A stretch of DNA of 44,836 nucleotides from contig CATJOM010000105.1 in the NCBI GenBank assembly GCA_949741915.1, positions 1-44,836 on the forward strand, in the 5' to 3' direction. Below are positions 7,227 to 44,656 of this stretch, piece by piece. Position 1 is the first letter of the stretch; every line of letters begins with the position of its first letter. The translations under genes and the position numbers were made by a program. The DNA is from an uncultured Candidatus Melainabacteria bacterium (GTDB lineage: Bacteria > Cyanobacteriota > Vampirovibrionia > Gastranaerophilales > Gastranaerophilaceae). Below the pieces are notes generated by a model, which was given only the letters and a program-made list of their open reading frames with translations, was not told where the DNA came from and searched no databases.

Positions 7227-7700
7227 TTAAACGGCCTTATTTAAAAATGTGCCGTCACTATAATTAAAATTGCCTTCATTTATGGATTCAAGCGCCTTTT
7301 TACTATCTAATATTTGCAAATTATCAAAACCACACTCTTGCTTTATTGTAGTAAGCCACACCCTATATTGATGTAGCGCCTTATATTTCATATATTTATA
7401 AACATCTTTAAAATCATCCCTGGTAAATTTTTCAGGCATTTTTTCAGACGTCTTTTTAAAGCTGCTTGTCTCTTTTTGCTCATCAAGGGCAATAAATTTA
7501 TCATACTTATCAGTATCTTTACCTGTAGTTATAAGCAAATAAGCAGGCATATCTGCTGCAGAATATCCAAATTCAGAACCAACTATCCTGCATTCTTTAT
7601 GTTGCTTTATTTCATCTTCAACATTTTTTACATCCTCACCCCTGCCTGTTATAATATATGCACCATTAAATGCTACATTTGATATCTTGCCAACATTCAT
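7227..7700 (-). CDS. Hypothetical protein with N-terminal NVAFNG motif; paralogue of the next gene
   Basis: 157 residues, family not recognised. It aligns along its whole length with the neighbour at 7844-8347. Shared blocks are SNVAFNGAYIITG (7-19), a conserved TTGKDTDKYDKFI block around residues 58-70, and a C-terminal KKALESINEGNFNY block. No signal peptide, membrane segment or known catalytic motif is visible. The ribosome site AAGGAG lies 11 bases ahead of the ATG. The two genes point the same way with a 143-base gap, so they may be separately promoted duplicates. The NVAFNG segment near the start recurs in other unknowns of the window. Confidence 0.75.
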   Translation of the reverse strand: MNVGKISNVAFNGAYIITGRGEDVKNVEDEIKQHKECRIVGSEFGYSAADMPAYLLITTGKDTDKYDKFIALDEQKETSSFKKTSEKMPEKFTRDDFKDVYKYMKYKALHQYRVWLTTIKQECGFDNLQILDSKKALESINEGNFNYSDGTFLNKAV

Positions 7701-7843
7701 AGTAATTTTCTCCTTTTATTCTGTTGTTCATTATAAAAAATAGTAAAATTATCACGGTTTTATCTATCAGTTTTACTTCTATGGATATTCATATTGCATT
7801 AATTACTAAATTATACGCAAAGTAATGTATACAATAGCTCTAA

Positions 7844-8347
7844 TTAAAAAATATTTTGTGCCCTCCCTTCTTGCCTAATTATACCCTCAAAATAGTCAAA
7901 TTTATTTTCATCTATTGCCCGAAGTGCATCTTTTGCGGTATAGGATTTTGTTTTAGAAGAAAAATCGCAAATATTTTCAATTGCAAATAAGCATGCCTTT
8001 GCTTCTTTTTCTTCTTCTACTGCAGGGGCATCACTATTGCGCACAGCAAAGGAAGGATGATCGCCCACTATTTTTCTTAATCTCCAATACTTGGGTTTCC
8101 ATTCAGTGATAAATTTTGTATATTTTTTAGCATCTTCCCCTGTAGTCACAATAATTGCACCATACTCTGTATTTGGCCAATAATTTCCATATCCAAGATG
8201 ATCAAATTTTACTCTACTTGAAAATCTTTCACTCTGTTCTTTTTTATGAATAAATTTTTCTTCAACCTTTGAAACATCCTTCATATCACCAGATATTGTA
8301 TAAACGCTTTTAAACGATATATTTGAAACTCCTGTGTTAATATTCAT
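7844..8347 (-). CDS. Hypothetical protein with N-terminal NISFKS motif; paralogue of the previous gene
   Basis: 167 residues, family not recognised. It matches the downstream neighbour at SNISFKSVYTISG (8-20), DVSKVEEK, IIVTTGEDAKKYTKFI and KDALRAIDENKFDYFEG, with insertions between blocks. One such insertion is the basic WKPKYWRLRKIVGDHPSF and acidic EEEKEAKACLF region in the middle. The chosen start is the only ATG that keeps the NISFKS block, and TTGAGGA lies 6-12 bases ahead. No secretion signal or membrane span is visible. The duplicates have diverged strongly (perhaps 30 percent identity by eye), so the duplication is old. Confidence 0.75.
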   Translation of the reverse strand: MNINTGVSNISFKSVYTISGDMKDVSKVEEKFIHKKEQSERFSSRVKFDHLGYGNYWPNTEYGAIIVTTGEDAKKYTKFITEWKPKYWRLRKIVGDHPSFAVRNSDAPAVEEEKEAKACLFAIENICDFSSKTKSYTAKDALRAIDENKFDYFEGIIRQEGRAQNIF

Positions 8348-11031: not shown

Positions 11032-12000
11032 ATGAAAATAAGCCCTTCACCCATAAGATATAATATCCAAAATTCCACCTCTTCAAAACCCTTACAAACA
11101 CAGGGCAAACAGATACAGCAATACCTTGGTGAAAGTCATTTATGCGGGCTCGATGCCCTGAGTAATTACAACCTTGCATTCGCAAGAAAGAAAACTGCTA
11201 TATACGCAATTAATACAGAAACAGGCAAACGCAAAAGATTTGACACACAAAGCAAGGCAGCCGACAAACTAAACATTAGGCAGCCATGTATTTCAAGAGC
11301 AGTAAATAATGACGATGGATACGGCAAAGCAGGAAAATACATATTCATAGATGCCTCCATAGTTGAAACAATTGATAAAAACGGCAAACGTCATCCTCGC
11401 AAGGCAAAAATCAACAAAATTATTCAACAATTTACACCTACAAGTGAGGCTTATTATGCTGTAAATAAGGATGACCCAGATGATTATATGTTTTTTAATA
11501 GCAGAGATGAAGCATTACAAGGGCTAAAAACCACGCCCGCAAATTTCAAAAAACATGTTTCAGGGAAAACAAAAAATATCATGGGCCGAATCATAATACC
11601 GGCAGACAAAGTTGAATCCATAGACAAAAATGGCGAAAAAATACTCGATAAACAGCAGATAGTTCAGATAATAAAAGAAAAAAAGCCTGAAACTCAAGCA
11701 AATCCATTATACATTTACAACACCGACGGAGAGCTTGTTCCTTATTTAAATCAAGCGCAAGCCGCTAAAAGCTTGGGCCGTACAAAACAAGCTATAAGCG
11801 AACGACTTAAGCGCGGACACCTGAATGTAGATGGCAATATCCTGATAAAAGCAAGGGATATTGAATACACAAATAAAAATGGCAAAATAGAAATAGATCA
11901 CGAAAAACTCAAGAGGATTCTGGAAGAATATCTGCCTCCGCATAAAATAAAATTAATAGATATATCTGAAATAATTCAACCGCTAAAAGCCGAAGCTTAA
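11032..12000 (+). CDS. Protein with three NUMOD1-like helix-turn-helix repeats, putative DNA binding
   Basis: 322 residues. After a polar Asn/Ser/Gln-rich N-terminus (1-50) it is built from three units of about 80 residues: 55-135, 139-217 and 224-301. Each starts with a short strand pair (AIYAINTETGKRKRF, AYYAVNKDDPDDYMFF, PLYIYNTDGELVPYL). A helix-turn-helix follows, as in SKAADKLNIRQPCISRAV and QAAKSLGRTKQAISERLKRG. Each unit closes with I-x-A-x(2)-(V/I)-E-x(2)-(D/N)KNG-(K/E) and a helix. This matches the NUMOD1 type of modular DNA-binding unit known from homing endonucleases, but no nuclease domain (GIY-YIG, HNH, LAGLIDADG) is present. Unit 2 has lost the clear recognition-helix pattern. 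AAGGAAG lies upstream of the ATG. It may be a sequence-specific regulator or nucleoid protein; the function is inferred from the repeats only. Confidence 0.65.
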   Translation: MKISPSPIRYNIQNSTSSKPLQTQGKQIQQYLGESHLCGLDALSNYNLAFARKKTAIYAINTETGKRKRFDTQSKAADKLNIRQPCISRAVNNDDGYGKAGKYIFIDASIVETIDKNGKRHPRKAKINKIIQQFTPTSEAYYAVNKDDPDDYMFFNSRDEALQGLKTTPANFKKHVSGKTKNIMGRIIIPADKVESIDKNGEKILDKQQIVQIIKEKKPETQANPLYIYNTDGELVPYLNQAQAAKSLGRTKQAISERLKRGHLNVDGNILIKARDIEYTNKNGKIEIDHEKLKRILEEYLPPHKIKLIDISEIIQPLKAEA

Positions 12001-12681: not shown

Positions 12682-14988
12682 TTAAAAATTTTGCTGGCGG
12701 AATAAATTAACAAACTTGTCATACGAAGCAGCACGCTTGTAATAATCTTCATTTAGCAAACTTTCTGCACTTGCACCATATTTTTTTATAAAATCTTCCA
12801 ATACATTTATCATTTTCATTTGCTTATCAACACTATTCTCAATTTGAATTACATTCTTTATAATTTGTGTTTCAACTGCCTCATAAACCCCATAAGCACC
12901 CAAAGGTTTATTATATTTTTTATACAATTTGTCAAGTTTGGAGAAATCAGGCCTTTTTTCTATTACAACAGGGCTATTTTCAGCTATTTGCACAGGAAAT
13001 TCATCATCAGCTATTGTATACAGCATCTTTGCAATTAGTGATATTTCCTCATAGTTTAGTTCAAAAAATCTTGCAGCACTTATACAGCCATTACTTGCTT
13101 CATGTAGAACCTCAGCCAATGCTTGCTCTATCGCTCTGGTGCATCTGAAGACCTCTTCTTTATTTGTAGTTTTAGCTATTACATTTGCAAGATATACACC
13201 ATCATCCTTGCTAATACGCTCTTGATTTTCGACAATTTTATACAGCAAATATATGGCTTTCTTATCATTCAGATTTTTTCTTATAAATCCAGTATAATCT
13301 TCAAGAAAAGCATCTGGTAAAAATTCATAATGTGCGCAGTATTTATTATTAAAAAACTTATCCAATGCTCTCTTGGCTGCAGCGGAATCAATTTCTGTTT
13401 CAGGCGTGCCATCCTTTGTTGGCACAGCTGCATCAGTTTTTAAACCTGGATTATTTTTCCCCCTGTGTAGTTTCTTGCCTGCAGATTGTTTTTTTGCACT
13501 TGCACGCGCATCAAGAATTTCAAACTTCAGGTTATCAAATTTATCATTATCAATCGAATCCTTAAGCTTTTTATAAGATTCTTTTATTTCTTCCCCTAGT
13601 TTTATGGCATCTTCTGGATATTTTTGCCAAAAAGTTGTCATTATCTTTTTTTGAAACTCCGAAAAGTCAGCCTCTCTGTAAAAAAGCCCGTTAGGATTAT
13701 GGTAATTATTTTGATGCATAAAATCAGACATATGCTCCCTAATTTCGCCGCAGTTGTTCCATGCATCAATCATTATTAACCTGTGTTTTTCAGAGCCAGA
13801 CTGCATCTTTTCAATTAATGCAGTCCTTTCTTCATTTGATAAATTCTGCCACCTTGCTATCTGTCCCTGAATTCTCTTCTTATTCAGAGCCTCTTTATCC
13901 TTATCAGAAAGACCTGCCTCAAAAATCTCCAGATTTTTTCTTGCCCACTCTAAATATAAAGCATCTTCTGAAAGTGACGTTTGCATCTTAGCAGACTTGC
14001 GTTTTTTTCTAACAGATGCAGCTAGCCCATCTATAACACCACATTGTTCATCTTTATTATCTTCTTTGTTCTTCGGTTTTAAAACAGGCTTTTTTGCCTT
14101 ATCGGCATTCGCGTATGCTTTCAAAAGAGCAAGTTGATTATTCTTTGTTTCAAGCAAGGCAAGTTTTTCTTCATGCGGCAAAGAATGCCACCAGTTTTCA
14201 ATAGACAATAGGGCTTTTTTGCTTCTTTCGTACCTTTGTTCAGCTGTTAGGCTATTCCAATACCCAATAAGCCCTTCAGAAACTTTTTTACCAATCTCAT
14301 CACTATAACCTTCCCTTGTGGATTCTAAAGAGTGTTTATAGGCAGCATTCTGTCGTATTCCAAGAGATGATAAAACCTCATATGTTACATATTTTTTATC
14401 TTCATTCTTAAAAACAGGGTTTAAGTCACAGTCTAAATCGTCGTTTATCTGGTCTTTTGTTTTATTCTCAAGAAAAATTTTCTTTAGAAGATATACGGTT
14501 AAATCTTCCCCGCTCTGCAATATACCACTGCCCTCCGCCTCTAAATCAGGCTTCATTAGGCGCGCTTCATATAAAAAGCCGGTTTTTGCTACAGTTTGCC
14601 CAACCGTTTTTAGATTAGAAAACAAGACCTCATCTGGATAAAGCTCTTTCACATCATCAACATTGCTTGCCAAAAGCAGATCTTTAAAAGCCTCATACTG
14701 CGCTGCAAGCGGTGTTATCGTTTCTCTTTTATCAGAAGAAAGCGATTCAATATACCTCTTCACCGTAGATGGCATTATATTCTTGTTTCTATCATAAAAA
14801 GCCTGCATACTTTTGTCGGTTCTTGCTTCAAAGGAAATATAATATGATACGGGATAACTCATTAATGAATTACCTTGCCCTGCAGGGTTTTTAGAGTGCA
14901 CAAAAGCTAAATGATGGCCGCCGGGCAGTTTAGACGCGTTTTGGGCAGCCTGTATATTATAATTTTGAGAGATACTTGAAACTTTCAT
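12682..14988 (-). CDS. Large hypothetical protein with Trp-x-Ser-Leu repeats
   Basis: 768 residues, the largest unknown in the window. The first 50 residues are Asn/Gln/Ser-rich and lead into YISFEARTDKS (50-60), the same kind of Phe motif seen in other unknowns. A compact helical part follows. Three copies of a W-x-(S/N)-L-x-x-E-(E/Q)-(R/K) motif occur at 244-252, 267-275 and 380-388, each followed by a basic helix. A basic linker (RKKRKSAKMQ, near 328-337) and a second basic low-complexity patch (KKQSAGKKLHRGKNNPG, about 504-520) separate the domains. No catalytic motif, signal peptide or membrane span is seen. The start ATG is the first in the frame. The basic linkers and Trp motifs would suit nucleic-acid binding, but that is speculation. 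Confidence 0.7.
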   Translation of the reverse strand: MKVSSISQNYNIQAAQNASKLPGGHHLAFVHSKNPAGQGNSLMSYPVSYYISFEARTDKSMQAFYDRNKNIMPSTVKRYIESLSSDKRETITPLAAQYEAFKDLLLASNVDDVKELYPDEVLFSNLKTVGQTVAKTGFLYEARLMKPDLEAEGSGILQSGEDLTVYLLKKIFLENKTKDQINDDLDCDLNPVFKNEDKKYVTYEVLSSLGIRQNAAYKHSLESTREGYSDEIGKKVSEGLIGYWNSLTAEQRYERSKKALLSIENWWHSLPHEEKLALLETKNNQLALLKAYANADKAKKPVLKPKNKEDNKDEQCGVIDGLAASVRKKRKSAKMQTSLSEDALYLEWARKNLEIFEAGLSDKDKEALNKKRIQGQIARWQNLSNEERTALIEKMQSGSEKHRLIMIDAWNNCGEIREHMSDFMHQNNYHNPNGLFYREADFSEFQKKIMTTFWQKYPEDAIKLGEEIKESYKKLKDSIDNDKFDNLKFEILDARASAKKQSAGKKLHRGKNNPGLKTDAAVPTKDGTPETEIDSAAAKRALDKFFNNKYCAHYEFLPDAFLEDYTGFIRKNLNDKKAIYLLYKIVENQERISKDDGVYLANVIAKTTNKEEVFRCTRAIEQALAEVLHEASNGCISAARFFELNYEEISLIAKMLYTIADDEFPVQIAENSPVVIEKRPDFSKLDKLYKKYNKPLGAYGVYEAVETQIIKNVIQIENSVDKQMKMINVLEDFIKKYGASAESLLNEDYYKRAASYDKFVNLFRQQNF

Positions 14989-43915: not shown

Positions 43916-44656
43916 CTAAATTTGCAATATTTTTGTCCTCCAAGCTACTATTTCGGTTGGGGCCTTCAAACTTGTTTTGAATTTTTCTTCTAAATCAGTT
44001 ACTGCTTCTAAGCCATTTTTAGCAGCTTTTATTTGTTTGTCGGCCTGTTCAGAAGGATATATTTTTCTAATTTGTTCTTCTCCACCAAGTATGCGATTTA
44101 GCTCAGCCTTTCTATCTGATAACTTTCCGCAAGTTGTTGTGTTTCTATCCGCATTGGCCCATATTGTAACATCTTCCAGGCGTTGTTTAAATTTCTCAAC
44201 ATCTGTTTTGAATTGTTCATCAACCTCTTTGTGAAGCTTTTGTGCATTTTCATACATCTTTTCAGCTTCTTCCACCTTGCCCTGCTCTTTTAGGCGTTCT
44301 GCTTCGGTTTCAAGATGCCTTGCTTCTTCATCTTGTTCTTTATTAATATGGCAAGAGATATCTTTTAGGGCTCCCTTTTTGTTATCTACAAAAAGTGCAT
44401 TGTATCCTACACATTTTGAATTTATGCCACCTTGTTTTAGTTTAAATATCCATATATCAAAACCTTTCGCAGTGCTTGCTAAATCATAAGAATTCACCTT
44501 GTTTCCTAAAATCTCATCAACTGCGTCCTGGTTTTCTTTGCTTTCGCACATAACACCTTGAAAGCTTACATTGGTATTTTGTTTCACATTATTCTTACTT
44601 GCGTTATTCTTTACCGTAAAAGCATTGTAATTGTTATAGTTTGAGCCTATTCTCAT
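43916..44656 (-). CDS. Hypothetical protein with N-terminal NVSFQG motif and a coiled coil
   Basis: 246 residues, not recognised. The first 28 residues are almost entirely polar (Asn, Lys, Gln, Ser) and lead into NVSFQG (29-34), the same type of Phe motif found in the 7.2-8.3 kb pair and the 768-residue protein. A small alpha/beta part follows (FDIWIFKLKQGG, VGYNALFVDNKKG). A long Glu/Lys coiled coil then runs over roughly residues 105-160 (EARHLETEAERLKEQGKVEE). The end is helical with a Trp (IVAWRTKILQI). No signal peptide or membrane span is seen. AAGGAG lies 11 bases ahead of the ATG. The remaining bases to 44836 are AT-rich and hold its promoter region. Confidence 0.72.
   Translation of the reverse strand: MRIGSNYNNYNAFTVKNNASKNNVKQNTNVSFQGVMCESKENQDAVDEILGNKVNSYDLASTAKGFDIWIFKLKQGGINSKCVGYNALFVDNKKGALKDISCHINKEQDEEARHLETEAERLKEQGKVEEAEKMYENAQKLHKEVDEQFKTDVEKFKQRLEDVTIWANADRNTTTCGKLSDRKAELNRILGGEEQIRKIYPSEQADKQIKAAKNGLEAVTDLEEKFKTSLKAPTEIVAWRTKILQI

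What the first reader, a model, noticed from the sequence alone, without database searches (positions are those of the whole stretch)
7227..8347. Unrelated unknown proteins share a polar N-terminus and a short N-(V/I)-(S/A)-F-(K/N/Q/E) motif
Four minus-strand unknowns carry such a segment in the first 60 residues: NVAFNG, NISFKS, NVSFQG (gene at 43916-44656) and YISFEA (768-residue gene). In each, a leader rich in Asn/Ser/Gln precedes it and no Sec signal is visible. The downstream domains differ, except for the tandem pair here. A shared short N-terminal tag on otherwise unrelated proteins looks like a sorting, secretion or anchoring signal, perhaps lineage specific.
Basis: partly seen in the sequence, partly recalled or inferred. 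Interest (0 to 1): 0.65.

Follow-up and report, generated by a model that had tools for sequence, protein, structure and literature searches.

The report
Shared N-terminal protein address tag
Dozens of otherwise unrelated proteins in a gut-dwelling bacterial order (non-photosynthetic relatives of cyanobacteria) start with the same short, flexible address tag, which is probably a signal for sorting them, possibly out of the cell through a stripped-down flagellar export machine that these non-swimming bacteria have kept.

Summary
A refined two-part form is robust: M-[KRNQT]-[IVL], then an Asn/Ser/Gln-rich, acid-poor leader of 5-60 residues, then [VIL][STN]-F-[GKTQE]-[GKRA]. It is 4.1-fold enriched in the first 60 residues (p=5e-6), only with Phe at the centre, in two separate halves of the data, and not in outgroup bacteria. 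The start and the Phe motif co-occur in the same proteins (p=1.6e-6). In a 22-member family at about 20% identity, the tag Phe is invariant between hypervariable flanks, and AlphaFold leaves the tag disordered. The genome belongs to Candidatus Gastranaerophilales. Tagged proteins include orphans, a calpain-like protease, CheR-like methyltransferases, a glycogen branching enzyme and the flagellar export substrate FliK. The best machine candidate is a flagellar-type type III export apparatus: 57 of 59 relatives keep FlhA-family genes, including nearly all that lack flagellin. No type IV secretion ATPase or microcompartment shell was found. The tag is well supported; its reading by type III export is inferred (about 0.4), and an intracellular docking motif is the main rival.

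The parts
7227..7700 (-). 157-aa orphan protein with tag (MNVGKIS-NVAFNG-AYIITG...); paralogue of its neighbour
   Evidence: no homologue in 38 relatives
7662..7679 (-). tag element NVAFNG, residues 8-13
   Evidence: coordinates derived from the ORF
7844..8347 (-). 167-aa orphan protein with tag (MNINTGVS-NISFKS-VYTISG...)
   Evidence: AF2 model: residues 1-9 pLDDT below 50, first strand 14-21, so the tag lies before the fold (low-confidence model, pTM 0.60)
8306..8323 (-). tag element NISFKS, residues 9-14
12682..14988 (-). 768-aa protein, 49-residue leader, tag YISFEA, then a domain conserved in 11 of 38 searched relatives
   Evidence: most alignments with relatives begin at query residues 41-59, i.e. 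at or next to the tag, not in the leader
14824..14841 (-). tag element YISFEA, residues 50-55
43916..44656 (-). 246-aa protein with Asn-rich leader (MRIGSNYNNYNAFTVKNNASKNNVKQNT) and tag NVSFQG
   Evidence: no Pfam family above cut-off
44555..44572 (-). tag element NVSFQG, residues 29-34
11032..12000 (+). possible further member: MKISPSPIRYNIQNSTSS... leader and near-match NLAFARK at about residue 47; NUMOD/HTH-like repeats
   Evidence: does not match the refined motif, weak

Best explanation
The segment is a modular N-terminal address tag of the order Gastranaerophilales: a polar start with an aliphatic residue at position 3 (M-[KRNQT]-[IVL]), a flexible Asn/Ser/Gln-rich, acid-poor leader of 5-60 residues, and a short aliphatic-[STN]-Phe-x-[Gly/Lys/Arg/Ala] motif just before the folded part. 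SHOWN: existence, positional enrichment, two-part co-occurrence, lineage restriction in my samples, and conservation of the Phe in one family with variable flanks. INFERRED: the tag is read by the flagellar-type type III export apparatus that the order keeps even where flagellin is lost; the unfolded leader is threaded first and the Phe motif docks at an export-gate or targeting component (FlhB/FlhA, or the unusual free-standing FlhA C-domain protein). The passengers would then be exported proteins and effectors.
For: Tag: motif 4.1-fold enriched at N-termini, Phe-specific, 0.97-fold in outgroup; co-occurrence with M-[KRNQT]-[IVL] p=1.6e-6, none at internal windows or in outgroup, replicated in other genomes. 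In the 700-aa family the tag Phe is one of 16 invariant positions among 22 sequences at about 20% identity, with flanks variable in sequence and length, and lies in a disordered stretch (residues 1-20 pLDDT below 50). Type III link: leaders have N 3.3x, Q 2.2x, S 1.8x, D 0.29x, E 0.17x of interior frequency (the N/S/Q figures are partly inflated by the selection rule); in a selection blind to residues 1-9, Ile at position 3 is 39% against 12% (p=3.5e-6), the position-3 Ile bias published for type III effectors of two organisms (PMC2668754). FlhA-family proteins are in 57 of 59 genomes, flagellin in only 36: nearly all flagellin-negative members, own genome included, keep a full-length FlhA. 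The conserved cluster FliE-FliF-FliG-FliH-FlhA with rod genes is in named Gastranaerophilales contigs. FliK of G046, a member of a known export-substrate family, carries LSFKA at residue 12. Tagged GlgB and GH77 parallel Chlamydia, where GlgA, GlgB, GlgX, GlgP and MalQ N-termini are type III-secreted (PMC4829429). VirB4 is in 0 of 59, BMC shell in 0 of 29, tail sheath in only 6 of 29.
Against: No secretion data. Known type III signals are not known for a strict linear consensus. The rod/hook proteins read here do not show the tag. Sole-copy metabolic enzymes such as GlgB carry it, which would be odd if they are needed inside. In one family the motif recurs in a central linker. No needle, translocon or effector-chaperone set was identified. 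One class-level outgroup sample is thin evidence for lineage restriction. FliK is a single sequence.
Confidence: 0.4

Rival explanations
1. Intracellular docking motif: the Phe motif binds a cytoplasmic or membrane scaffold (a receptor, condensate or storage granule) and keeps tagged enzymes together; nothing is exported.
For: Motif recurs before the second module of the 700-aa family (22 internal hits against 6.3 expected); tagged glycogen branching enzyme and GH77 enzyme; AAA ATPase and CheR-like methyltransferases among the tagged; short motifs in disordered stretches are typical docking sites (general knowledge).
Against: Strict N-terminal placement in nearly all other tagged proteins (no downstream excess), coupling to the very first residues, and acid-poor leaders fit export better; no shell protein found.
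Confidence: 0.3
2. A different Sec-independent export or surface-anchoring route reads the tag (an unknown system, or a T2SS/type IV pilus related one).
For: Secretins occur in 58 of 59 genomes, so other outer-membrane routes exist.
Against: T2SS substrates normally need Sec or Tat signals (general knowledge), which the tagged proteins lack; VirB4 absent; contractile systems sporadic.
Confidence: 0.12
3. No address function: a lineage habit of Asn-rich disordered N-termini (low G+C codon use), with the Phe motif a minor by-product or simply the first strand of each domain.
For: Genome is 33% G+C; the literal motif is only marginally enriched; in the tandem pair the motif abuts the first strand.
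Against: Enrichment is Phe-specific; invariant Phe between hypervariable flanks in a deep family; coupling with position 3; tag lies outside the folded part in both models.
Confidence: 0.15

Closest known systems
N-terminal type III secretion signals (effectors)
   Same: First tens of residues, disordered, rich in polar residues, poor in acidic ones, Ile favoured at position 3
   Different: Here a recognisable Phe motif closes the leader; secretion not tested
Two-part export signal of flagellar rod/hook subunits (N-terminal hydrophobic residues 2-5 plus gate recognition motif; PMC8983047)
   Same: Hydrophobic residue near the start, polar spacer, then a short hydrophobic/aromatic motif
   Different: At least 26 residues are required between the two parts in FlgD; leaders here are often 8-15 residues. 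Flagellar rod proteins in this order do not carry the tag
Type III-secreted glycogen enzymes of Chlamydia (PMC4829429)
   Same: Branching enzyme and amylomaltase-type enzymes with N-terminal export signals and no Sec peptide
   Different: Different phylum, different apparatus, no experiment here; the GlgX-like enzyme here has an ordinary start
Bacterial microcompartment or encapsulin cargo-loading peptides
   Same: Short terminal tags on unrelated enzymes
   Different: No BMC shell gene in 29 genomes; encapsulin not searched
Contractile injection system cargo leaders
   Same: Disordered N-terminal packaging leaders (general knowledge)
   Different: Sheath gene in only 6 of 29 genomes while the tag is found in sampled members that lack it, such as G007

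Membership tests
Type III secretion substrate | Signal in the first tens of residues, not cleaved by Sec, no hydrophobic core | tested here: met
   Motif N-terminal; the blind-selected tagged set passes a no-hydrophobic-stretch filter
Type III secretion substrate | Composition: Ser/Asn/Gln rich, acid poor, Ile at position 3 | tested here: met
   literature rule from PMC2668754. Asn at position 5 and Ser/Gly at position 8 were not enriched
Type III secretion substrate | A type III export apparatus in the same genome | tested here: met
   FHIPEP in own genome (C88, C68); FlgF/G-type rod genes in L021 confirmed by Pfam; FlgC- and FlhB-like ORFs in L021 and L037 recognised by sequence only
Type III secretion substrate | Secretion that depends on the apparatus | not testable with these tools
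   needs an experiment
Flagellar early-subunit two-part signal | N-terminal hydrophobic signal and gate recognition motif at least about 26 residues apart | tested here: not met
   Tag leaders range from 5 to 59 residues, many below 20
Type IV secretion substrate | VirB4-type ATPase present | tested here: not met
   0 of 59 genomes
Microcompartment cargo | BMC shell protein present | tested here: not met
   0 of 29 genomes
   BLASTP joins only the tandem pair among the window proteins; Pfam hits differ
Sec/Tat secreted protein | N-terminal hydrophobic core or twin-arginine signal | tested here: not met
   Hydrophobicity filter in the blind selection; no signal peptide visible in the four leaders; no dedicated predictor available

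The most novel reading that the evidence does not exclude
The incomplete flagellar gene set of non-motile Gastranaerophilales, read in 2014 as not encoding a functional flagellum, is a working protein-export machine with its own linear address tag, exporting dozens of proteins (orphans, calpain-like protease, methyltransferases, glycogen enzymes) into the gut environment or host cells, with a free-standing FlhA C-domain protein as cytoplasmic reader of the tag.
Probability: 0.28. Interest if true: 0.85.

Novelty: new variant of a known kind. Interest (0 to 1): 0.66.

Why it matters
Gastranaerophilales are common gut bacteria, mostly known from genome assemblies. An address tag would let one list, from sequence alone, the proteins they sort or export, many of which have no recognisable domain. 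If the reader of the tag is the flagellin-less export apparatus, it would give a function to gene sets dismissed as incomplete flagella and provide a type III signal with a visible motif, which is long sought after. Full-text searches found no paper that describes such a tag in this group.

Tried and rejected
Unfiltered triple-residue enumeration was swamped by signal peptides; polar-leader enumeration was dominated by Asn-rich patterns, with n.SF among the significant ones. Pfam on the four window proteins and most tagged ones: nothing above cut-off. Foldseek with both models: no match. Homologues of the tandem pair: none in 38 relatives or viral contigs. Rejected as false positives: GlgX RFGA (L020, looks like the ordinary isoamylase start), NAD synthase ITFQG (L049), ribosomal-type and Sec-signal hits. 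Type IV secretion, BMC cargo and contractile-injection cargo rejected as order-wide readers. Published type III positional rule: position 3 Ile confirmed, positions 5 and 8 not.

Full report
What was checked. The window is contig C105 of a 2.45-Mb bacterial genome. Named loci in public genomes that share its relatives' gene clusters are Candidatus Gastranaerophilales, non-photosynthetic cyanobacterial relatives of animal guts. The two proteins at 7227-8347 are paralogues at 29% identity. They have no detectable homologue in 38 relatives, so they are fast-evolving or young genes. BLAST joins neither of the other two tagged window proteins to them or to each other.

Is the motif more than chance? 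I took stretches of the own genome (about 0.85 Mb) and two relatives (G046, G007), plus named contigs, called ORFs with a simple caller and removed redundancy. Looking at the N-termini showed a broader and clearer shape: M-[KRNQT]-[IVL] at the start, a polar leader, and [VIL][STN]F[GKTQE][GKRA]. The latter is 4.1-fold enriched in residues 6-60 (21 against 24 hits in a fivefold larger interior, p=5e-6). The excess vanishes if Phe is replaced by any other large residue, and it is absent from an outgroup set (0.97-fold). It holds separately in the own genome (3.8-fold) and in the other genomes (4.2-fold, p=4e-4). The start element and the Phe element occur in the same proteins far more often than expected (odds ratio 10, p=1.6e-6), with no such link for internal copies or in outgroup proteins. 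Caveats: the refined pattern was shaped on these data, start codons were chosen by rule, and the outgroup set is rich in flagellar neighbourhoods plus one class-level relative.

Is it a modular tag or part of a domain? The best test is a 700-aa family found in 44 of 59 genomes. In 22 sequences of about 20% identity the tag Phe is one of 16 invariant positions and the following Gly is over 90% conserved. The leader before it varies in length up to about 80 residues, and the linker after it also varies strongly. The AlphaFold model leaves residues 1-20, tag included, below pLDDT 50. For the window's 768-aa protein, most alignments with relatives begin at residues 41-59, at or next to the tag at 50-55, and not in the leader. 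A low-confidence model of the 167-aa window protein puts the tag just before the first strand. Two further small-protein groups keep MRI...(N-rich)...[VI][NSA]FG[KR] while the spacer between start and motif changes length. In the 700-aa family the motif also recurs in the central linker ahead of the second half (22 internal hits against 6.3 expected); other tagged proteins show no downstream excess.

Who carries it? Roughly 3% of sampled proteins. Most have no Pfam family. Those that do include a calpain-type protease, two CheR-like methyltransferases, an ABC1-kinase-like protein, an AAA ATPase, a glycogen branching enzyme, a GH77 glucanotransferase (tag less perfect, IAFQR) and, in a flagellated relative, the hook-length protein FliK (LSFKA at residue 12; PF02120 E=2e-18).

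What reads it? VirB4 is absent from all 59 genomes, BMC shell proteins from 29, and a contractile sheath is found in only 6 of 29. FlhA-family proteins are in 57 of 59, in three classes: one at E about 1e-263 that tracks flagellin, one at E about 1e-215 in nearly every genome, and a roughly 495-aa protein holding only the C-terminal half. Flagellin is in 36 of 59. Nearly all flagellin-negative members, including the own genome, still keep the second class; the order-level exceptions (G001, G032) are incomplete assemblies. The conserved cluster holds FliE, FliF, FliG, FliH, FlhA and often FliI and rod genes. [quoted passage not shown] Conservation across dozens of genera argues that the subset still works. 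The leaders also look like type III signals: N 3.3-fold, Q 2.2-fold and S 1.8-fold up, D and E 3- to 6-fold down (part of the N/S/Q excess comes from the selection rule). With a selection that ignores residues 1-9, Ile at position 3 is 39% against 12% (p=3.5e-6). Isoleucine at position 3 is a published shared feature of type III signals in two pathogens (PMC2668754). Chlamydia exports its glycogen enzymes, GlgB and MalQ included, by type III signals (PMC4829429), a parallel to the tagged glycogen enzymes here. In G007 the tagged GH77 gene lies next to the free-standing FlhA C-domain gene on the same strand, 41 bases apart.

Verdict. The tag is real as a lineage-level N-terminal short linear motif (my confidence about 0.85). 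That it is an export signal of the flagellin-less type III apparatus is the best-supported mechanism, at about 0.4. A docking motif inside the cell is the main rival, supported by the internal copies and the sole-copy metabolic passengers. No experiment exists either way.

Noticed in passing
L114:13541-15019(-), L162:10727-12202(-); own G000:C68:33211-34254: A free-standing protein of about 495 aa that holds only the C-terminal cytoplasmic half of FlhA (PF00771 positions about 310-655), found in nearly every genome of the order, also where flagellin is missing.
   Followed up: partly
59 relatives: Two full-length FlhA classes: one tracks flagellin, the other is order-wide and kept in flagellin-less genomes, which suggests a non-flagellar export role.
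   Followed up: partly
L078:7135-9234(+), L063:13506-15569(-) and homologues (alignment A1): Order-wide 700-800-aa helical family made of two similar halves, no Pfam or PDB match, with the tag and a second copy of the motif in the linker; some members end in [VI]NFTN.
   Followed up: partly
L036:20326-21531(-), L034:8259-9761(+), L021:19140-19874(-): Several calpain-like protease paralogues in one gut bacterium, one with what looks like an EF-hand stretch (the first is in merged coordinates of G000:C35).
   Followed up: no
window 11032-12000(+): 322-aa protein with weak NUMOD/HTH-like matches (repeat-like) and an Asn/Ser-rich MKIS leader, without a nuclease domain recognised by Pfam.
   Followed up: no
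L250 (IMGVR_UViG_3300006133_000071): A viral-collection contig that appears to run past a recombinase gene into host DNA with two tagged host genes, one a short-leader relative of own L081:3029-3673.
   Followed up: partly
L170 (ONVC01000010.1): Record titled uncultured Acinetobacter sp. carries a Gastranaerophilales-type flagellar cluster (80% FlhA identity to G046); probably mislabelled.
   Followed up: no
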